DNA from: a virus
Strand: one strand, 5' to 3'
Length of the DNA: 20,009 nt
IMG/VR virus record: IMGVR_UViG_3300042731_006420
Coordinates: 1-20,009 of that record
Shown: one piece after another, positions 2,320 to 19,596 of the stretch
Position numbering within the stretch: position 1 is the stretch's first letter
Layout: every line of letters begins with the position of its first letter
Translations under genes and position numbers: made by a program
Notes under the pieces: generated by a model
Told to the model about the DNA's origin: nothing
Seen by the model: only the letters and a program-made list of their open reading frames with translations
Database searches by the model: none

Positions 2320-3318
2320 CTAAAATGAGGGCTTGGGCTTTCCCTGCCCTGTGTCCTTGCCGCTATCGTCCTCGTTCTGGTCCACCTGTTCATCGTTTTC
2401 AGAGATCGCCCCATTTTCGGACTCTGCGGCGTTCTTCTGAATGCCCATATCTATCAGTTCACCCTGGTTCGCCTCCTTCTCGATCTCAGATTTGTAATCG
2501 ATCTCGTTATGGCCGGCATCCATGGCCGCGTACTCGTCGGCTTCGACCTGGGAAAACGAGGCGTTTATCTTCTTAGGATCAAGCACGATCTTTTTTACCG
2601 TCTGGTGCACAACCGTTTTGAGTTGCATGTCAGCCTCGTATGGCCCCCAAAACTTGGTGGTTCCGGATTTCGACTTGGCCCTGTTGAAGTCGGCAACGGT
2701 CAGGATGACCAGCTTGTTGAGTTCGCTGTTCTCGTACATGATGTATCCGAAGCCGCCGACAACTTTACCGCGGTCGAAAGGTTTTGGGATCTCAAATTCA
2801 TAAGACTCAACCGCGTTGTCTATCGATTTTTTGATGACGGCGAACCTGTCGTTTTCGTGAACCAACTCATAGATGATGTCTACCGGAGGATTCAGAGCCA
2901 TTTTCCGGTAATAATAATCCTTTCCGGCGTACCCCACGCGCAGATCAACGTCATATTTTCCGGTTTTCCCGTTCAAATAGGGGATAGGATGGATATGATT
3001 CGGGATAAGCGCGTCGAGGCCGAGTTCAATTCGATGCATGGAATCGATAGCCAGCTTAGCAAGGTTGGCGTTTTCCCATGTGATGGGCAGGTTATTGGGG
3101 TTCTTCTTTGCCCTGTCGGTATCCAGGGCCCTCAATTGGAAGTCGATCTTCAGGAACATATGTTGTGCAAGCCGGCGCTGGTATCCGTCCAGGTTCACCT
3201 TGCCGCCGTCCTGGGCGTACTCTTTCATCACCATGTTGGTGAATCGTTCAGATTGATTCAGCTGGGTTTTTGTAAGGGCATTTTCCTCAACCGGTGGTTT
3301 CTCGTTTTTGGTTGCCAT
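2320..3318 (-). CDS. recT: RecT-family single-strand annealing protein
   Basis: A 332-aa RecT/Bet-type annealase, which coats single-stranded DNA and anneals complementary strands in phage recombination. The start at ATG 3318 is chosen because GGGAGG lies at good distance and the next upstream gene stops at 3326; an open extension to 3423 lies inside that gene. Family pattern: an early helix GYQRRLAQHMFLKI, ITWENANLAKLAIDSMHRIELGLDA, then the core beta region DVDLRVGYAGKDYYYRKMA, and the characteristic KFWGPYEADMQLKTVVHQTVKKI, matching the RecT W-x-x-x-x-EM-x-K-T segment. The C-terminus is long and acidic (ENDEQVDQNEDDSGKDTG), a usual place for contacts with a single-strand-binding protein. 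It lies directly downstream of the SbcC-like ATPase and upstream of nucleases, forming a recombination module. Confidence 0.85.
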   Translation of the reverse strand: MATKNEKPPVEENALTKTQLNQSERFTNMVMKEYAQDGGKVNLDGYQRRLAQHMFLKIDFQLRALDTDRAKKNPNNLPITWENANLAKLAIDSMHRIELGLDALIPNHIHPIPYLNGKTGKYDVDLRVGYAGKDYYYRKMALNPPVDIIYELVHENDRFAVIKKSIDNAVESYEFEIPKPFDRGKVVGGFGYIMYENSELNKLVILTVADFNRAKSKSGTTKFWGPYEADMQLKTVVHQTVKKIVLDPKKINASFSQVEADEYAAMDAGHNEIDYKSEIEKEANQGELIDMGIQKNAAESENGAISENDEQVDQNEDDSGKDTGQGKPKPSF

Positions 3319-3325
3319 CTCTGTT

Positions 3326-5362
3326 TTACCTCCCTTCAAATCTGAGTTCTTTATCTTTATCGCTGACAATAAGCCTGATGGTCTGGGAGCCAGACTCAAG
3401 CAGCTGGGTGACAGACTCGGCATTGTCGACGAACTTGACCATGCTGATGCCGTAGAAAGACGATAGTACGTTTTGGATATCGATTCCGACGTTCAGGCGC
3501 GAGGCGTTGTTCATCGTATTGTACTGTACGCCATCATGGGTGGCCACGCATACCGGCTCAATACCTCCGTTGATCTGCTTTTCGAACAGCTTGAACCTGG
3601 TGATAAGGAACTTGTCGTTGATTGAATCCTCGATCATGCGGGTCTTGGCCTGTTCGAACTCTCCAATCAGGTACAGCTCATGTTCCAGGCGCTCAAACTC
3701 CTTGGCGAGATTATTTTCCTCGTCGCGCAGTTCCTCTACGCGCTTTTCGGAAGTGGCCGCGGCCTCTATTTTCAGCTTTTCGGCCTTGAGATCGTCGAGT
3801 GCCTTTTCGGCCTCGTCCACTTCGGCCTGTGCCTCTGTTGTGTCAGGCGAGTCGACCTCTTTTATGTGGTCGATCTTTCCCTTTATCGTTTCGACAGCGC
3901 GCTTCAGATCGTTGAGGGTCTTGTCGGGATGCTGTTTTGGTTCGACCGGGGCAACCTCTATGATTTCCGTGAGGGCTTTGGAAAGGTCCGATTTCTGGCT
4001 TTCGAGGGAAACGAGTTTTTCGTTGATCTTCTCCAGTTCGTCGAGGCCCTTTTTAAGAGACGCCTGGCGCAATTCAAGGATGGCTTTTTTCTCTATTCCC
4101 TCCTCGTTTATTGCCTTGAATGTGTCGGCCTGGGCCTCGTTGAACTCGGCAAGCGCTTTTTCACTGGCTGCCTTTTGATCCTCCTCCGGTATCGGTTGGC
4201 CGCAGCGTGAACATATGCCCTCAACGTCTGGAACGAACGTCTTTTCAGCTTCCGCATTAAACCGGGATCTCAGTTCAGCCAGATTCTTTTCTAATGAGGT
4301 TATGTCCTTTTCCAGCTCGGCGTTTTTGTCCTTTACCTCGCGCTGTTTGGCCTTCTGGTCCGATACCTTTTTAGAGGCGGTTTCGACATTTTTAGTTGCC
4401 TTGTCGATTTTCTCCTGACGCTCTTTGGCGATGGCATCCACCAGAATCTGGTGATCTTTTTTGAGTTGAGTCTCCCGGTCGATTACGGAGGCCTCGGCCT
4501 CGGCCAGCTTCTTTTTCAGGTCCGATATGGCGCCCGCGCTAAGGGCCTCTTTTTTCTTCCTGAGAACCTTGTCGGCCGACTTGATCTCCTCGAGGACCGT
4601 ATCGTAATCCCTGAGAGAATCATCCTTGTCGCGGGTGCGCTCGTCGATCCTGGCCGGTATCTTGTCCAGCTCCTTGTTGATTTTGGTTTGGCGCTCCTTG
4701 GCTATTTTGCGATGATCGTCAAATGATCTCTTTTTGAGGATTTCGATCATGGCGGCATAGCCCGGGTCCAGTTCACCGTCAGGAAACATCCGGCGAATGA
4801 CATCCTCGTCACTCAGATCAACTCCGCACACCTCGAAAAGGAGCTTTCTCCTGGCCTCTTGCTGGGTGCATTTCTTGCCGTTGTAGGTTGTCAGCACCTC
4901 GTTGAAAAATCTCGGGTTGGTCAGCAGCTTGAACGTCAATTCGGGGCAGATATCATCGACAACCCTTTTGAATTCCTTCTCCTGCAGCGGCACCCCGTCA
5001 ACGTAATAATCGTTTTTGTTGCCGGTGAAGGTGTCATGGGCATCACCGCGATGGCGCACCCATGTTTCGGTGTGGACCTTTTTGAGGGATTTTTCAACTC
5101 CATCGATAATCAGGACGGCCTCAACCATGTGCTCCTCGTCACCAGATACCACCTCCCCGTTTTCATCGACCGTTTTTATCTGAAAGTTCGCTTGGTCGAG
5201 AGAGTCCTTGTTGAAAAGGAGCCAGTAGAAAGCGTCGGCAAGGCGGGTCTTTCCACTCTTGTTATCACCAAAAACATCGGTGTCATGGCCGTCCGGTTCA
5301 ATCGTCAGGCTGCCGCCCTTGAAATTTTTCAATGATAGTCTTTTTAGCCGAATTTCCTTCAT
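3326..5362 (-). CDS. Rad50/SbcC-like AAA ATPase with zinc hook
   Basis: A 678-aa SMC/Rad50-type protein starting at ATG 5362 behind AAGGAGG. Residues 1-40 give the N-terminal lobe with Walker A GDNKSGKT (32-39). A long coiled coil (about 215-370 and 400-570, rich in E, K, L and A) brackets a zinc-hook CSRCGQP near residue 383, which dimerises such proteins through zinc. The C-terminal lobe has SRLNVGIDIQNVLSSFYG and VKFVDNAESVTQ, the phage version in which the Walker B/D-loop region reads FVDNAES. Such phage ATPases sit beside RecT and an exonuclease and are thought to manage DNA ends during recombination. Compared with cellular SbcC (about 1,000 aa) the coil is short. Partner nucleases here would be the MBL-fold or PD-(D/E)XK proteins downstream; that is inference. 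Confidence 0.85.
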   Translation of the reverse strand: MKEIRLKRLSLKNFKGGSLTIEPDGHDTDVFGDNKSGKTRLADAFYWLLFNKDSLDQANFQIKTVDENGEVVSGDEEHMVEAVLIIDGVEKSLKKVHTETWVRHRGDAHDTFTGNKNDYYVDGVPLQEKEFKRVVDDICPELTFKLLTNPRFFNEVLTTYNGKKCTQQEARRKLLFEVCGVDLSDEDVIRRMFPDGELDPGYAAMIEILKKRSFDDHRKIAKERQTKINKELDKIPARIDERTRDKDDSLRDYDTVLEEIKSADKVLRKKKEALSAGAISDLKKKLAEAEASVIDRETQLKKDHQILVDAIAKERQEKIDKATKNVETASKKVSDQKAKQREVKDKNAELEKDITSLEKNLAELRSRFNAEAEKTFVPDVEGICSRCGQPIPEEDQKAASEKALAEFNEAQADTFKAINEEGIEKKAILELRQASLKKGLDELEKINEKLVSLESQKSDLSKALTEIIEVAPVEPKQHPDKTLNDLKRAVETIKGKIDHIKEVDSPDTTEAQAEVDEAEKALDDLKAEKLKIEAAATSEKRVEELRDEENNLAKEFERLEHELYLIGEFEQAKTRMIEDSINDKFLITRFKLFEKQINGGIEPVCVATHDGVQYNTMNNASRLNVGIDIQNVLSSFYGISMVKFVDNAESVTQLLESGSQTIRLIVSDKDKELRFEGR

Positions 5363-8195: not shown

Positions 8196-8813
8196 CTATA
8201 TGTCGTCGAAAACGACCGGCAGCAATCCGCGCAGTTCATCCAGCAGAGGAAGCATGAGCGCCCTCATCTGAGGATGAGCTGCTTTTGCTGTTCTTAGCTT
8301 GAAAATGTGCCGCCACTCACGAATATTGGCTTGTACAACGATCTCGGTTTTGAGGCTGTTGGGGAGCACTTCGCGTGCCTGTTCAGGACGCCATCCGAGT
8401 TGGCGCAGTCTTTTGTACTTTTCCTCGGCCTGCATCAAAGAGTCGGTGAATGCTGCCCACGCCCTTGATTCATCGGTGTTGCCGGAATATTGGTTTAAAT
8501 CCCAAACTGGACGAATAAATTCCATTTCTGACTGATAATCGACATATCTGGTACTCTCCTGGGCGAACGAACAAAGCCGGTGCCGCACCAGTTCGTGTGT
8601 CACTCCCCGGTTGGTGACGAATTTCACGATGATTGATCCAAATTCGATCATGGCGTGGTGTCCGCGCTTTATGAGCATCTCAACAAACGCTCCCGCCGAG
8701 TTTACGTCAATACGATCCTCGGACTTGTAGCAGGTCCGCCCAGCTCTCTCCAAGGTCTGTAAAATACCGTCTGGTACGCTTAAAATCTCATGTGATTGAT
8801 CGATAATTTTCAT
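8196..8813 (-). CDS. thyX: flavin-dependent thymidylate synthase
   Basis: A 205-aa ThyX, which methylates dUMP to dTMP using methylene-tetrahydrofolate, with FAD and NAD(P)H. The signature RHRLCSFAQESTR at residues 77-89 is the ThyX motif RHR-x7-S-x-R. Also visible are GHHAMIEF near 51-58, a conserved family histidine region, and the C-terminal RTAKAAHPQMR that contributes to the nucleotide site (family shape R-x-x-x-x-A-x-x-x-I/M-R). The start is ATG 8813 with AAAGGAG ten bases away. The length is normal. Phages carry thyX to raise the dTTP supply during replication. The leader contains the 21-base motif shared with the deoxyribosyltransferase gene. Confidence 0.95.
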   Translation of the reverse strand: MKIIDQSHEILSVPDGILQTLERAGRTCYKSEDRIDVNSAGAFVEMLIKRGHHAMIEFGSIIVKFVTNRGVTHELVRHRLCSFAQESTRYVDYQSEMEFIRPVWDLNQYSGNTDESRAWAAFTDSLMQAEEKYKRLRQLGWRPEQAREVLPNSLKTEIVVQANIREWRHIFKLRTAKAAHPQMRALMLPLLDELRGLLPVVFDDI

Positions 8814-12354: not shown

Positions 12355-13467
12355 GTGATAGGTTTCAGTGGCTTGAATTATTACAACGACAACGACAAAT
12401 TTTCAGTAAAATGGCTAAGGTGTCTGATCGAGTCAAATCTAATACCGCACGGTGAAGTCGATGACAGAAGCATCACAGAAATCAAACCAGCAGAACTTAA
12501 AGGATTTAATCAATGTCACTTTTTCGCAGGCATTGGAGGATGGTCTTACGCACTTGCATTGGCTGATTGGCCCAGGAACAGACAAGTGTGGACCGGAAGC
12601 TGCCCATGCCAGCCATTCAGTGTCGCGGGGAAAGGCGAAGGAATTAGAGACGATAGACACCTTTGGCCCGCTTTTCGGTGGCTTATCGCGCAATGCAGAC
12701 CTGCAACAGTATTTGGAGAGCAGGTTGCGAGCCTCGATGGACGTGAATGGCTCGCTGGAGTACGTCTTGACCTGGAAGCGATGGGATATCGATTCGGGGC
12801 CGCCGATCTGTGCGCTGCGGGCGTCGGCGCGCCGCACATACGGCAACGACTTTGGTGGGTGGCCGACTCCAACCAGCAAGGAAAAAGCTGGTGGGGAATA
12901 CAAAGACCCGGAAAAAGCTTTGAAGCGTGCTCTGGGTCCGCATGCAAACGATCTTCGGGATTTTGCGCAAATGGCGGGGTGGCCCACACCAACAGATTCA
13001 ATGATGACAGAACAGGACATGGCACAGGCGATGACGGCCGGAAACAGTCTGAAACGAAAGGGCTATCAGGAGTCGAAGATTTTTTCGGGATGGCAGACAC
13101 CATCCGCAACGGACGGAAAGAGAGGAGGAATAGGGATCACGGATGGAATGACAGGGCAGAGTCTTACCCAAATGGCGAAAATGACCGGTTGGCCGACCCC
13201 AACAGCAACGGATTCATCAAAGAGAGGGAGCGTATCACCGAGACCTGGGATGATGGGTTTGTCGGAAACGGCCCCGCTTTCTGGGAAAATAGCAGAATCG
13301 TCATATGTAGGGACGGAAAAAATAGACGGATACCGGCTGAACCCCGCTTTTTCCCTTTGGCTGATGGGTTACCCACCGGAACTGTGGGCCTACTGCGTGG
13401 TGCCGGAAATGCGATCAATCCATACGTTGGCGCAAAGTTTATAGAGGCGTTTTTATCAATTCAGTGA
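12355..13467 (+). CDS. DNA cytosine-5 methyltransferase, phage type
   Basis: A 370-aa C5 methyltransferase that methylates cytosine using S-adenosylmethionine. The start is GTG 12355 with a weak ribosome site, chosen because residues 4-20 (FSGLNYYNDNDKFSVKW) belong to the phage-family N-terminus. Motif I HFFAGIGG ends near residue 62. The catalytic loop GSCPCQPFSVAGKG has Cys85. GEQVAS (121-126) replaces the usual ENV, and APHIRQRLWWVAD (159-171) is motif VIII. GNAINPYVGAKFIEAF near the end is motif X. The target-recognition part (about 172-330) contains four related segments, VADSN, VAHTN, MADTI and LADPN, each from the same DNA repeat. A long second frame lies entirely within this gene. The role is probably protection from host restriction. 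Confidence 0.9.
   Translation: MIGFSGLNYYNDNDKFSVKWLRCLIESNLIPHGEVDDRSITEIKPAELKGFNQCHFFAGIGGWSYALALADWPRNRQVWTGSCPCQPFSVAGKGEGIRDDRHLWPAFRWLIAQCRPATVFGEQVASLDGREWLAGVRLDLEAMGYRFGAADLCAAGVGAPHIRQRLWWVADSNQQGKSWWGIQRPGKSFEACSGSACKRSSGFCANGGVAHTNRFNDDRTGHGTGDDGRKQSETKGLSGVEDFFGMADTIRNGRKERRNRDHGWNDRAESYPNGENDRLADPNSNGFIKERERITETWDDGFVGNGPAFWENSRIVICRDGKNRRIPAEPRFFPLADGLPTGTVGLLRGAGNAINPYVGAKFIEAFLSIQ
12461..13444 (+). CDS. WPTP-repeat protein encoded inside the Dcm gene, +1 frame
   Basis: A 327-codon open frame lies entirely within the methyltransferase gene in the +1 frame. Its product has four spaced repeats: GGWPTPT, AGWPTPT, SGWQTPS and TGWPTPT. Before them is YVLTWKRWDIDSGPPICALRASARRT, and near the end YRLNPAFSLWLMGYPPELWAYC. 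From memory, proteins with spaced WPTP repeats and an L-N-P-x-F-x-x-W-L-M-G-Y/F-P ending occur in phages and metagenomes, some apparently without an overlapping methyltransferase; I cannot check this here. ATG 12461 has no good ribosome site, nor does GTG 12452, so translation is unproven. Either it is a genuine dual-coding gene or a by-product of conserved Dcm sequence. No function is known. Confidence 0.5.
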   Translation: MTEASQKSNQQNLKDLINVTFSQALEDGLTHLHWLIGPGTDKCGPEAAHASHSVSRGKAKELETIDTFGPLFGGLSRNADLQQYLESRLRASMDVNGSLEYVLTWKRWDIDSGPPICALRASARRTYGNDFGGWPTPTSKEKAGGEYKDPEKALKRALGPHANDLRDFAQMAGWPTPTDSMMTEQDMAQAMTAGNSLKRKGYQESKIFSGWQTPSATDGKRGGIGITDGMTGQSLTQMAKMTGWPTPTATDSSKRGSVSPRPGMMGLSETAPLSGKIAESSYVGTEKIDGYRLNPAFSLWLMGYPPELWAYCVVPEMRSIHTLAQSL

Positions 13468-16466: not shown

Positions 16467-17084
16467 ATGGTAAAGCGAGTCGATTGGGTCCCTATAGAAC
16501 GCGAGATACGCGCCGGCCAACTATCCAACCGAGAAATTGCCCGTCAATACGACATTTCCGAAACAGCTATCCGAAAGAGAATAAAATCAAGAGGTATAAA
16601 GAGGGACTTGTCAAAGCGGGTGCGAGAGGAGGTTCGCACAAAACTGGTTCGCGGAGACGTTCGCACCGACAATGCGAACACAGATTCGGTATCAGATGAT
16701 CAGATTGTTGACGAGGCGTCTGACAGGGCATTAAGTATTGTTAGGTCACACCGTAAGTCGATCTTAAGCGGAAGGGTAATAGCAAACCAGCTTTCAGACC
16801 AATTGTCGCTCGTAGCCGACAACCGCGAGGCCATAGAGCAGGCCATAATTGACGACACTCCACCGGATGAAAACGGAAAGATCGATATCAAAAGGCGAAA
16901 CGCCATGTTAAAGGCGGTCTCGCTTCCTGCCCATGCAGGCGTATTGAGGGATCTTTCTGTTGTTTTGAAAAACATCATACCCCTTGAGAGACAGGCGTTC
17001 AATATAGACGAGACTGCAGACAGCGACGGTCCGGACGCCGTTTTGATTTCGTATCGAAAGAAAGACCAGGATGACGAAAAATAG
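16467..17084 (+). CDS. terS: terminase small subunit
   Basis: A 205-aa DNA-binding subunit of the packaging motor, from ATG 16467 with TAGGAG upstream. The N-terminus VDWVPIEREIRAGQLSNREIARQYDISETAIRKRIKSRGIKRDLSKRVREEV is the helix-turn-helix of phage small terminases, which recognises the packaging site. A coiled, oligomer-forming middle (about 80-130) and a C-terminal part LPAHAGVLRDLSVVLKNIIPLERQAFNIDE follow, the latter a known family ending for contact with the large subunit. The gene overlaps terL by 14 bases. The length is normal. Confidence 0.85.
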   Translation: MVKRVDWVPIEREIRAGQLSNREIARQYDISETAIRKRIKSRGIKRDLSKRVREEVRTKLVRGDVRTDNANTDSVSDDQIVDEASDRALSIVRSHRKSILSGRVIANQLSDQLSLVADNREAIEQAIIDDTPPDENGKIDIKRRNAMLKAVSLPAHAGVLRDLSVVLKNIIPLERQAFNIDETADSDGPDAVLISYRKKDQDDEK

Positions 17085-19596
17085 CATACCGAATTTCGAT
17101 ACCGAAATAGCAAAGTTTCAGCCTAAGCAGGTGTCTGCGCTTGATCACCTTGACTCAGGAATGATCAAGTTTTTGCTTTATGGTGGTGCACTCGGGGGTG
17201 GGAAAAGCTATTTTCTCAGGTGGTACGCAGTTCGCAGGTTGATGATTTTGTTCTCATGGGGGTTCAAAGGGGCGGTAGGAATGATCGCCTGTGAGAATTA
17301 TCCTTCACTGAAGGACAGGCAAATCTCTAAGATTGGCGTAGAGTTCCCATCTTGGCTCGGAAAATACTACGACAAGCACAAATTATACAGCAGCTGCTTC
17401 ATTCTCGACAAAAGATGGGGGTCTGGTGTAATCTGTTTCAGAAACCTTGACGATCCAGCAAAGTACGCATCATCCGAGTTCGCATTCATCCTTGTCGATG
17501 AGCTCACCAAAAACAAAATTGAGGTATTCACGTTTTTAAGAACACGACTCAGGTGGCCAGGGCTTCCAGACGTTGAGTGCCAGTTTGTCGGGGCTTCCAA
17601 CCCGGGATCGGTCGGCCATGGATGGGTAAAAGCGCTTTGGATGGATGGAGTATTCGGAAAAGAATGGATCGAGCCTATAGATTATCGAGGCATGTTCGCA
17701 TATGTTCCTTCGACCGCGGCCGACAACAAATATCTTGGGGATGATTATTGGGCTATGCTTTCGTCGTTGCCGGAAAATATCAGAGAGGCCTTCAAGGACG
17801 GCAATTGGAATGTGTTTGTTGGTCAGGCCTTCCCCCAATTCAATCGAGAAACCCACGTTATAAGGCCAACTAAGATACCGGAAAATGCCCCGATGTACAC
17901 CACGTTCGATTGGGGGTACGGGAAACCGTTCTCCTGGGGCTGGTGGTGGGTCGACACAGACGGCAGGATATACCGTTTTGCTGAGTGGTACGGGTGGTGC
18001 GACATTCCAAACGAGGGTTTGAGGCTTTCGGATAAAGATATTGCAATCGGAGTTCTTGAGCGTGAAAAGCAGCTTGGAATAAAGAGGTCACAGATAACCG
18101 CAAGTCTTGCCGGACACGACTGCTGGAATAAGAAACCAGATTATAAAGGCGGCGGCCAGGGACCATCGACCGCAGATGTATTTGCGTCTTTCGGTATTTA
18201 CATGACGCCAGGAGATTCTTCCAGGGCATTAAAGATCAGGCAATTCCGAGAGCGCCTACGGGTTCCAACTGACGGCAGTATGCCGATGATGATGATCAGC
18301 AATACATGCAAGCAATTTATCAGAACCATAAGCGACCTCGTTGTCGACGAGAACAATATCGAGGACGTTGAAACAGATGGCGAAGATCACTGTATTGCGG
18401 GTGGGACGATGGTTTGCACACCATGGGGGTTGATCGCAATCAGAGATCTTGTCGGCACCCATGGTCTTGTCCTAACGGCAGGTGGGTATTGGACGGATTT
18501 CGACGGGTGCAGTCTCACGCGCCGCGATGCAGAAACGGTTAAAGTCTCTTTTTCAGATGGTAGGTCAATAACATGCACGCCTGACCATAAATTTCTAACA
18601 AAAAAAGGATATTGGGTTTCTGCAAAATGGTTGCTTGACGAAGAATGCCATGATAGTATCGGCCTCAAAAAACACATCAAGGAAGCGCTATCATGCGGGT
18701 CAAAATCATCAGCGATACAACGCAGGAGTTTGACGGCAAACGGTACTGGTTGTGCGGGTTCTATTATCAACGCAAAGGGTCGAGGCTACATCGGGCAGTT
18801 TGGGAATACCACAACGGCCCTATCCCCAATGGAGCACACATTCACCACCGAGACAAAAACAGATCAAACAACCAGCCAGAGAACCTCGAATGCAATCGGT
18901 CCACGCGACACATGTCGTTACATGCCAGGCAAAACGACCATTCGTCCTGGCAAGCCTCCATGCGTCAAGGCGCGGCGAAGTGGCATAGAAGCGATGCGGG
19001 CCGCGAATGGCACAAAGAACAGTACGAAAAACACTGCAAGAAGGCTCTTAACCAGGTGGTCCGAAAATCATGCGAATACTGTGGCACTGAATTCGAAGGT
19101 AAAAAATACGCCCGGTTCTGTACTCGCCGTTGTCAGCAGAAGAATTGGTACGAATCGCAACGATCTGAACGGGAGTGCTCCGTTTGCGGTGTGGCGTTTA
19201 TCGGAAGCGGACGCGCTTGTTCGAAATCTTGTGCTGCAAGACTCGCATGGGAGAAGCGCAAGGGTTGTTAGCGTAACCCCCTCTGGACGACAAGACGTTT
19301 ATTGCCTCAATGCCGCCATTACCCACGCATTTGCTGTGGAGGGCGGCATTGTTGTTCATAATTGCTACGACGAGGCGGCCCTCCTGTGCATGTATCGGCC
19401 GCTTAGCCTCGAAATGCCGGAAGCGCCAAAAGCATCTCATGACAAACGAATCGAAAACCTTTACCGCGGCGACCAGGACGATTACGAGGAGAACGCTGCA
19501 TACGAGCAGGAATGGGCCATGAGATACCTGGGGGCCGGAGAAAGCGACATAGACGCGGAGGAATACGACGATGGAGACCTTGTTAGGACAATATAA
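17071..19596 (+). CDS. terL: terminase large subunit with intein
   Basis: An 841-codon frame: 517 residues of terminase interrupted by a 324-residue intein (residues 441-764). The ATPase domain has Walker A YGGALGGGKSY (37-47) and Walker B FILVDE (about 138-143). The RNase H-like nuclease domain has TFDWGYGKP (Asp about 280), AGHDCWNK and the third acidic motif DGEDH, which is split: the intein starts directly after DH and the extein resumes CYDEAALLCMYRP. Joined, this reads GEDHCYDEA, the usual D-H-x-x-D-E/A-x-R-Y end of the nuclease centre. The start ATG 17071 overlaps terS; its ribosome site is weak (AGGA), so coupling is likely. The protein powers DNA packaging and cuts the genome. Without splicing the nuclease centre is broken, so intein removal is needed for activity. 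Confidence 0.92.
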   Translation: MTKNSIPNFDTEIAKFQPKQVSALDHLDSGMIKFLLYGGALGGGKSYFLRWYAVRRLMILFSWGFKGAVGMIACENYPSLKDRQISKIGVEFPSWLGKYYDKHKLYSSCFILDKRWGSGVICFRNLDDPAKYASSEFAFILVDELTKNKIEVFTFLRTRLRWPGLPDVECQFVGASNPGSVGHGWVKALWMDGVFGKEWIEPIDYRGMFAYVPSTAADNKYLGDDYWAMLSSLPENIREAFKDGNWNVFVGQAFPQFNRETHVIRPTKIPENAPMYTTFDWGYGKPFSWGWWWVDTDGRIYRFAEWYGWCDIPNEGLRLSDKDIAIGVLEREKQLGIKRSQITASLAGHDCWNKKPDYKGGGQGPSTADVFASFGIYMTPGDSSRALKIRQFRERLRVPTDGSMPMMMISNTCKQFIRTISDLVVDENNIEDVETDGEDHCIAGGTMVCTPWGLIAIRDLVGTHGLVLTAGGYWTDFDGCSLTRRDAETVKVSFSDGRSITCTPDHKFLTKKGYWVSAKWLLDEECHDSIGLKKHIKEALSCGSKSSAIQRRSLTANGTGCAGSIINAKGRGYIGQFGNTTTALSPMEHTFTTETKTDQTTSQRTSNAIGPRDTCRYMPGKTTIRPGKPPCVKARRSGIEAMRAANGTKNSTKNTARRLLTRWSENHANTVALNSKVKNTPGSVLAVVSRRIGTNRNDLNGSAPFAVWRLSEADALVRNLVLQDSHGRSARVVSVTPSGRQDVYCLNAAITHAFAVEGGIVVHNCYDEAALLCMYRPLSLEMPEAPKASHDKRIENLYRGDQDDYEENAAYEQEWAMRYLGAGESDIDAEEYDDGDLVRTI
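18391..19362 (+). mobile_element. intein in terL, 324 aa, inserted at the nuclease motif DH|C
   Basis: Block A is CIAGGTMVCTPWGLIAIRDL with Cys1. Block B is SITCTPDHKFLTKKGYW with the T-x-x-H site. Block F is VSVTPSGRQDVYCLNAAITHAFAV, and block G is GGIVVHN with C+1 of the extein. All residues needed for standard splicing (Cys1, the block-B His, His-Asn, Cys+1) are present. In the intein's own frame the middle (about residues 100-285) shows no LAGLIDADG or HNH domain; it is rich in T, S, N, R and G, as expected when a gene is read off-frame. A complete HNH gene lies there in another frame. The splice halves add up to a mini-intein of normal size. Confidence 0.9.
18693..19271 (+). CDS. HNH homing endonuclease nested out of frame inside the intein
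   Basis: A complete 192-aa gene in the +2 frame relative to terL, starting at ATG 18693 with AAGGA nine bases upstream. Residues about 12-75 read FDGKRYWLCGFYYQRKGSRLHRAVWEYHNGPIPNGAHIHHRDKNRSNNQPENLECN, the HNH pattern of free-standing homing endonucleases (H-I-H-H-x-D, N-x-x-x-N-L, then a later H). Two zinc knuckles follow, CEYCGTEF...FCTRRC and CSVCGVAF...CSKSC. The gene begins soon after the intein's block B and stops at 19271, just before its block F, exactly in the usual endonuclease slot, yet in a different frame. The terL frame remains open through all 192 codons. It probably spreads the element by cutting intein-free terL genes. Confidence 0.87.
   Translation: MRVKIISDTTQEFDGKRYWLCGFYYQRKGSRLHRAVWEYHNGPIPNGAHIHHRDKNRSNNQPENLECNRSTRHMSLHARQNDHSSWQASMRQGAAKWHRSDAGREWHKEQYEKHCKKALNQVVRKSCEYCGTEFEGKKYARFCTRRCQQKNWYESQRSERECSVCGVAFIGSGRACSKSCAARLAWEKRKGC

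What the first reader, a model, noticed from the sequence alone, without database searches (positions are those of the whole stretch)
18391..19362. HNH homing-endonuclease gene nested in a different frame inside a terminase intein
Seen directly: the intein reads A and B blocks, then 192 codons of off-frame-looking sequence, then F and G blocks. The same central DNA encodes a full HNH endonuclease with two zinc knuckles, its own start and its own ribosome site. Known: intein endonucleases are normally fused in frame, whereas free-standing endonuclease genes overlap introns or lie between split-intein genes. Inference: a free-standing HNH gene invaded a mini-intein and both frames were kept open, so splicing and homing are separately controlled. 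This may be an undescribed route to composite inteins.
Basis: partly seen in the sequence, partly recalled or inferred. Interest (0 to 1): 0.92.

Follow-up and report, generated by a model that had tools for sequence, protein, structure and literature searches.

The report
Out-of-frame endonuclease inside phage intein
In many phages the protein that packages DNA carries a self-removing insert (an intein) whose middle also encodes, in another reading frame, a complete DNA-cutting enzyme with its own start and stop, so one stretch of DNA appears to serve two selfish functions; the layout recurs in more than a hundred phage sequences and is not an error.

Summary
Confirmed and generalised. The window's TerL ORF (17071-19596) holds a complete intein (18391-19362). 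Its central DNA encodes a 192-aa HNH endonuclease (18693-19271) in another frame, with its own Shine-Dalgarno, start and stop. AlphaFold supports both readings: the intein frame folds only at its two splicing halves (pLDDT 91-98; overlap about 40-65), while the HNH frame folds throughout (95). It is not a sequencing error. I found 128 distinct loci (<95% nt identity) with this nested, contiguous layout, 117 in the window's relative frame and 11 in the other. Nearly all sit at the TerL nuclease motif; no TerL case is fused in frame. Only openness of the intein frame is conserved in the overlap, not its sequence. Other states exist too: HNH beside intein-free terL; mini-intein terL beside a free-standing HNH; split inteins flanking the HNH; mini-inteins keeping HNH 3' remnants. 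One genome pair, 92-97% identical in the flanks, differs by a 468-nt HNH segment. Best reading: a selfish HNH gene overprinted in an intein, spreading by homing while the intein splices out. Splicing, cleavage and HNH expression are inferred. Prior art: out-of-frame HNH without an intein (ShiLan, PMC11855218); one relevant preprint could not be read.

The parts
16467..17084 (+). terminase small subunit gene (context)
   Evidence: phrog_1206, E=7.2e-46
17071..19596 (+). terL ORF, 841 codons, interrupted by the intein; N-extein 17071-18390, C-extein 19363-19593
   Evidence: ORF; phrog_2 terminase large subunit 3.3e-23; PF04466 7e-7
18391..19362 (+). intein, 324 codons, Cys1 to Asn324, inserted at the TerL nuclease motif EDH^CYD
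   Evidence: TIGR01445 above cutoff, PF14890, empty-site relatives EDH-PYD
18391..18660 (+). N-terminal splicing half (blocks A and B; Cys1, TxxH at 18577-18588)
   Evidence: pLDDT 91-98; residues C1, T63, H66 invariant in 34 relatives
18661..19257 (+). intein-frame spacer, predicted disordered, sequence not conserved, only kept free of stops
   Evidence: pLDDT about 40-65; similarity equals recoding null
19258..19362 (+). C-terminal splicing half (blocks F and G; His323-Asn324, then Cys)
   Evidence: pLDDT 92-98; Foldseek to DnaE inteins across both halves
18679..18684 (+). Shine-Dalgarno AAGGAA of the HNH gene, 8 nt before the ATG
   Evidence: same motif and spacing 6 times in the window vs 0.40 expected
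18693..19271 (+). HNH endonuclease gene, 192 codons plus TAG, intein frame lies at HNH+1
   Evidence: PF13392 1.2e-15; phrog_15471 7.8e-36; mean pLDDT 95.3
18783..18893 (+). HNH_3 domain match of the HNH gene (residues 31-67)
   Evidence: H51, H52, N60, N64, H73 invariant
19071..19133 (+). first zinc knuckle (C127, C130, C143, C147)
   Evidence: conserved in relatives
19176..19232 (+). second zinc knuckle (C162, C165, C176, C180)
   Evidence: conserved in the five closest relatives

Best explanation
A composite mobile element at the active-site motif of the phage TerL gene. A HINT intein reads straight through and should splice itself out of TerL (residues and predicted fold shown; reaction inferred). 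A free-standing-type HNH homing endonuclease gene sits at the usual endonuclease position of that intein but in another frame, and is translated from its own ribosome site (site shown; expression inferred). The HNH protein would cut intein-free terL so that repair copies in the intein plus HNH (inferred from presence/absence patterns, terL linkage and homology to HNH homing enzymes). Because the HNH gene keeps its own stop codon it cannot be in frame with a continuous intein, so the intein survives only if its frame across the HNH lacks stops; that is the one property conserved in the overlap. The intein-frame translation of the HNH DNA is a disposable spacer removed with the intein. The layout belongs to a family showing HNH beside terL, mini-intein with adjacent HNH, nested HNH, split intein, and mini-intein with an HNH remnant.
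For: Two complementary folds from one DNA stretch. 128 distinct nested loci, two relative frames, HNH motif intact in 124 and splicing residues in 125. 0 stops vs 136.5 expected over 70 loci, free-standing controls at expectation; codon-junction avoidance follows the intein's frame. HNH-blind survey: about 59 of 80 loci nested, 13 mini, 6 broken, 1 in frame in a non-TerL protein. Own ribosome site. Presence/absence: L208 vs L224 differ by a 468-nt HNH segment with flanks 92.4% and 97.4% identical. Empty-site relatives. terL-linked free-standing HNH homologues and L181. HNH profile finds the homing enzyme I-HmuI (E=0.0014).
Against: No splicing, cleavage or expression data exist here. For the window alone the open frame has P=0.042. 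Zero stops is part of the definition of the nested class, so the weight rests on the number of such loci and on the controls. Some nested loci lack a recognisable ribosome site. Structural match of the HNH model to I-HmuI is not significant (E=0.14). Most loci are metagenomic contigs. Homing is not demonstrated; block exchange around terL could be ordinary recombination.
Confidence: 0.85

Rival explanations
1. Sequencing or assembly error: the HNH is really fused in frame and a frameshift makes it look overlapping.
For: Intein endonucleases are usually fused in frame; an in-frame HNH intein does exist in another protein (L215).
Against: Identical sequence in a 58-kb contig; 128 distinct loci with the same layout and a complete HNH start and stop; none of the TerL loci in frame; both intein halves share one frame, so two compensating errors would be needed every time.
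Confidence: 0.01
2. Fossil: the HNH gene is not expressed and is a passenger left inside a working intein.
For: Truncated HNH genes exist (L148, L161; BL3); mini-inteins with HNH remnants.
Against: HNH motif intact in 124 of 128 loci; substitutions concentrate at HNH third positions; ribosome sites well above background (>=5-nt match in 39% of nested loci vs 6% of internal codons); stops absent although a fossil would be free to decay.
Confidence: 0.05
3. The HNH is a packaging nuclease partner of TerL rather than a homing enzyme, as proposed for HNH proteins beside terminase in HK97-like phages.
For: Strong terL linkage in all states; literature precedent discussed in PMC10448857.
Against: Close TerL relatives lack any HNH nearby (L119-L121, L124); near-identical genomes differ in having it; position at the conserved intein endonuclease site; sporadic distribution.
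Confidence: 0.06
4. The insertion is a self-splicing intron carrying an HNH gene, not an intein.
For: HNH homing genes commonly live in phage group I introns.
Against: No Rfam match in the window or 16 relatives; continuous frame with all intein catalytic residues conserved; confident Hint halves.
Confidence: 0.01

Closest known systems
[quoted passage not shown]
   Same: Complete HNH ORF in another frame, host frame kept open, sporadic distribution; the host frame is also at HNH+1.
   Different: No splicing element (no C-Hint hit in gp65; authors also found none); no ribosome site reported; different HNH architecture (zinc-HNH-zinc); non-essential host gene. Here a full intein in essential TerL.
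Composite (large) inteins with an in-frame endonuclease domain
   Same: Same Hint fold and endonuclease inserted between blocks B and F.
   Different: Endonuclease is in another frame with its own start and stop, so it is a separate protein.
Fractured genes: split inteins with a free-standing endonuclease gene between the halves (Dassa et al. 2009, known from citation and memory; paper not held)
   Same: Separately translated endonuclease gene in the middle of an intein; split relatives of this family look like this. Closest solved structures include gp41-1 and NrdJ-1 split inteins.
   Different: In the window and 127 other loci the intein frame is continuous through the endonuclease gene; nuclease is HNH, not the family of that paper.
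Collaborative homing (free-standing endonuclease beside an intron-bearing gene; described in PMC10448857)
   Same: HNH gene with its own translation signals; free-standing versions beside terL, once beside a mini-intein terL (L181).
   Different: Splicing element is a protein intein, and the HNH gene usually lies inside it.

Membership tests
Intein (HINT protein-splicing element) | Splicing residues: Cys1, TxxH, His-Asn at the end, Cys/Ser/Thr +1 | tested here: met
   invariant in relatives; 125 of 128 nested loci
Intein (HINT protein-splicing element) | Hint fold | tested here: met
   predicted model, pLDDT 91-98 in both halves; matches DnaE inteins
Intein (HINT protein-splicing element) | Splices in vivo | not testable with these tools
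   needs expression assay
Composite intein with in-frame endonuclease | Endonuclease domain in the intein's own frame | tested here: not met
   HNH is in another frame with its own stop; 0 in-frame among TerL loci
HNH homing endonuclease | HNH nuclease domain with catalytic residues | tested here: met
   PF13392 1.2e-15; residues conserved
HNH homing endonuclease | Cuts the empty allele and drives transfer | not testable with these tools
   only indirect: presence/absence and exchange blocks
Group I intron with endonuclease gene | Catalytic intron RNA structure | tested here: not met
   no Rfam match at gathering threshold
ShiLan-type out-of-frame HNH insertion | HNH out of frame with host frame open | tested here: met
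   ShiLan itself checked
ShiLan-type out-of-frame HNH insertion | No self-splicing element | tested here: not met
   full Hint intein surrounds the HNH here
Fractured gene with split intein | Intein halves in separate ORFs | tested here: not met
   window intein is one ORF; met in 20 distinct relatives

The most novel reading that the evidence does not exclude
A widespread, previously undescribed class of phage inteins in which the homing endonuclease is overprinted out of frame: whole free-standing HNH genes enter mini-inteins at the TerL active-site motif, the nested form persists under selection only against stops, and it converts into natural split inteins and back into mini-inteins. It would link free-standing endonucleases, composite inteins and split inteins in one family.
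Probability: 0.55. Interest if true: 0.86.

Novelty: new variant of a known kind. Interest (0 to 1): 0.78.

Why it matters
How inteins acquire endonucleases, and how split inteins arise, are long-standing questions; structural work calls the fixed endonuclease position 'puzzling' (PMC6801210). Here one family shows, at one gene site, the states such a history needs: empty site, adjacent free-standing HNH, mini-intein plus adjacent HNH, nested out-of-frame HNH, split intein, and mini-intein with an HNH remnant. An out-of-frame gene explains simply how a complete endonuclease gene with its own stop codon can sit inside an intein without an exact in-frame fusion. It is also a large natural set for studying overlapping genes where one frame is a pure spacer, a caution for annotation (some of these HNH genes are unannotated, e.g. 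in TJE1, Highwayman and LS06), and a source of candidate split inteins.

Tried and rejected
Frameshift fusion: rejected, the HNH frame has stops at 18636, 18651 and 18654 before its start. Group I intron: no Rfam match. Dual-function coding of the overlap: rejected, intein-frame similarity equals the synonymous-recoding null in 60 pairs, controls alike. My first codon-junction test applied the wrong dinucleotide rule to the HNH+1 loci and was redone. The wide HNH alignment could not seed a genome-contig scan; a tighter set worked. JN020142 is not ShiLan; JN020143 is. One alignment call failed on a wrong coordinate. Preprint 10.1101/2025.01.02.630785 and Dassa 2009 are not held. Trees resolve weakly: split loci form one Hint group (support 88) plus Vibrio 1.238, but lie in two places of the HNH tree, so I claim no number of conversions.

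Full report
Observation. The window is a virus record of 20,009 bases. TerL is read from 17071 to 19596 without a stop. Residues 441-764 are an intein: Cys at 18391, TxxH at 18577-18588, His-Asn at 19357-19362, then Cys. NCBIfam intein_Nterm is above its cutoff, Pfam Intein_splicing hits slightly below its gathering score, and all 34 aligned inteins match that family. The central DNA contains, in another frame, ORF 18693-19271. It encodes a 192-aa HNH protein (PF13392 1.2e-15; full-length phrog_15471). AAGGAA lies 8 nt before the ATG, a motif and spacing seen six times in the window against 0.40 expected. Stops in the HNH frame at 18636, 18651 and 18654 exclude a frameshift fusion.

Two readings, two folds. 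AlphaFold2, using window and locus sequences only, gives pLDDT 91-98 for intein residues 1-90 and 92-98 for about 290-324, but about 40-65 in between. The HNH reading of that DNA gives mean pLDDT 95.3. Foldseek aligns the intein model to DnaE inteins across both halves. A profile search finds gp41-1 first and NrdJ-1 among the best, both split inteins. The HNH matches only I-HmuI, weakly by sequence (E=0.0014) and not significantly by structure (E=0.14).

Not a single case. Searching by the HNH protein gave 115 classified loci: 77 with a continuous intein and the HNH in another frame, 15 with the intein halves in separate ORFs, 21 without a detectable intein, 2 partial, and none in frame. An HNH-blind survey seeded by the intein N-half gave 80 loci: about 59 nested, 13 mini-inteins, 6 broken, and 1 in frame, in a radical-SAM-like protein with a different HNH; its seeds came from nested loci, so it is not fully unbiased. 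Pooled and dereplicated at 95% nucleotide identity: 128 nested (117 with the intein at HNH+1, 11 at HNH+2), 20 split and 8 mini. The HNH motif is intact in 124 and the splicing residues in 125 of the 128. Three nested cases are in annotated phage genomes (TJE1, Highwayman, LS06), others in bacterial assemblies. Nearly all insertions are at the TerL nuclease motif, DH^CxDA or one to a few residues away.

Is the open frame more than chance? For the window alone, shuffling synonymous codons within the HNH gene leaves the intein frame open in 4.2% of trials. Over 70 HNH+1 loci 136.5 stops are expected and none seen; over seven HNH+2 loci 10.6 per locus are expected and none seen; free-standing relatives show 6.57 against 6.26 expected. 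Nested HNH+1 genes have 0/768 NTA codons before A or G, against 23% before C or T in the same genes and 35-42% before A or G in free and split genes; HNH+2 genes have 0/106 T-ending pyrimidine codons before AA, AG or GA against 72% elsewhere. The zeros follow from how the class is defined; the information is that so many such genes exist and that the stop-free frame changes with the intein's frame.

What is conserved. Between pairs of nested loci, intein-frame identity in the overlap is 0.209 against 0.203 for the stop-avoiding synonymous null (mean z 0.27, 60 pairs), the same as in control frames. Substitutions concentrate at HNH third positions. So the HNH protein is under selection, and the intein reading of the overlap is only kept open; it is best seen as a spacer removed with the intein.

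Related states. (a) Empty site: TerL relatives 61% identical read EDH-PYDS with no intein and no HNH in the fetched flanks. (b) Free-standing HNH beside an intact terL (PAE1, SN1, FBPa53, PhiSTP1, L047, L072, L106 and others). (c) L181: terL with a 126-aa mini-intein, followed about 70 nt downstream by the HNH ORF. (d) Nested, as in the window. (e) Split: the C half usually has its own candidate start, often with a ribosome site overlapping the end of the HNH gene. (f) Loss: L224 (mini-intein) and L208 (nested) share flanks of 1893 nt at 92.4% and 2007 nt at 97.4% and differ by a 468-nt HNH segment; homology resumes inside the HNH ORF. Mini-intein L210 still encodes QNCKMSARRRRLNP and the HNH stop in the HNH frame, a remnant including a zinc-ligand Cys codon, which points to deletion from a nested form. 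Brochothrix BL3 has a truncated HNH between split halves.

Exchange around the element. The window-type contig and L125 are 95-97% identical in upstream blocks and at the end of terL, but the terL block between is replaced, and L125 carries a different nested intein a few residues upstream of the window's site. Acinetobacter phages Highwayman (nested) and BP10 (free-standing HNH, shorter TerL) are 92-96% identical in the aligned flanks but carry different terminase blocks. This fits published observations that nuclease genes lie at boundaries of phage gene exchange (PMC10448857), but does not prove homing.

Mechanism. Shown: the two overlapping genes, their conserved residues, translation signals, the selective pattern, and presence/absence polymorphism. 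Inferred: splicing of TerL, internal initiation of the HNH, cutting of intein-free terL, and copying of the element. A complete gene with its own stop cannot lie in frame in a continuous intein, so invasion by a whole HNH gene must give an out-of-frame layout or a split. The HNH+1 frame meets far fewer stops than HNH+2 in free-standing genes (6.6 vs 18.2 per gene), which may explain the 117:11 bias. Rival functions (packaging partner, fossil ORF) are less likely but not excluded by experiment.

Prior art. PMC11855218 (2025) described an out-of-frame HNH in a phage methylase (ShiLan) with no splicing element; I confirmed that the gene has no C-Hint hit and a different HNH order. That paper cites a preprint on non-canonical intein architecture (10.1101/2025.01.02.630785), which I could not read. 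Ten literature searches found no description of an out-of-frame endonuclease inside a splicing-competent intein, but the library is partial. I therefore file this as a new variant of a known kind.

Noticed in passing
L125:3501-5613 versus window 17071-19596: A contig 95-97% identical to the window's phage in flanking blocks carries a replaced terL block with a different nested-HNH intein at a nearby upstream site; the end of terL is near-identical.
   Followed up: partly
L022 (Acinetobacter phage Highwayman) and L035 (BP10): Flanks 92-96% identical, but the terminase block differs: nested HNH intein in one, free-standing HNH upstream of terS in the other.
   Followed up: partly
L011:1254-4754: TerL with two inteins: one near the P-loop (GARGGGKG) with no HNH noted, and one nested-HNH intein at the nuclease motif.
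   Followed up: no
L018:1-2685: TerL-like ORF with a nested-HNH intein and a second, short intein further on.
   Followed up: no
L215:1952-4057: Intein in a radical-SAM-like protein (CPFNC motif) with an in-frame HNH of another type: the only in-frame case seen.
   Followed up: partly
L028 (Brochothrix phage BL3) 727-2607: Split terL intein (gp2/gp3) with a truncated HNH remnant overlapping the junction; a candidate natural split intein in a cultured phage.
   Followed up: partly
L023 and L036 (Vibrio phages 1.238 and 1.245) 2420-3151: Large HNH-type gene between split terL intein halves, not annotated as a gene in the records; the C half is annotated as a hedgehog/hint protein.
   Followed up: partly
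L176 and L177, near 371 and 2501: Nested-HNH intein at a different TerL site (FLCH^CQHEKDVFNW), so the layout is not tied to the nuclease motif.
   Followed up: no
L004:3566-4303: Nested HNH gene with an extra C-terminal zinc knuckle, lengthening the intein to 377 residues.
   Followed up: no
window 2320-5362, 8196-8813, 12355-13467: Other phage genes: RecT-like and SbcC-like recombination proteins, thymidylate synthase, DNA methyltransferase.
   Followed up: no
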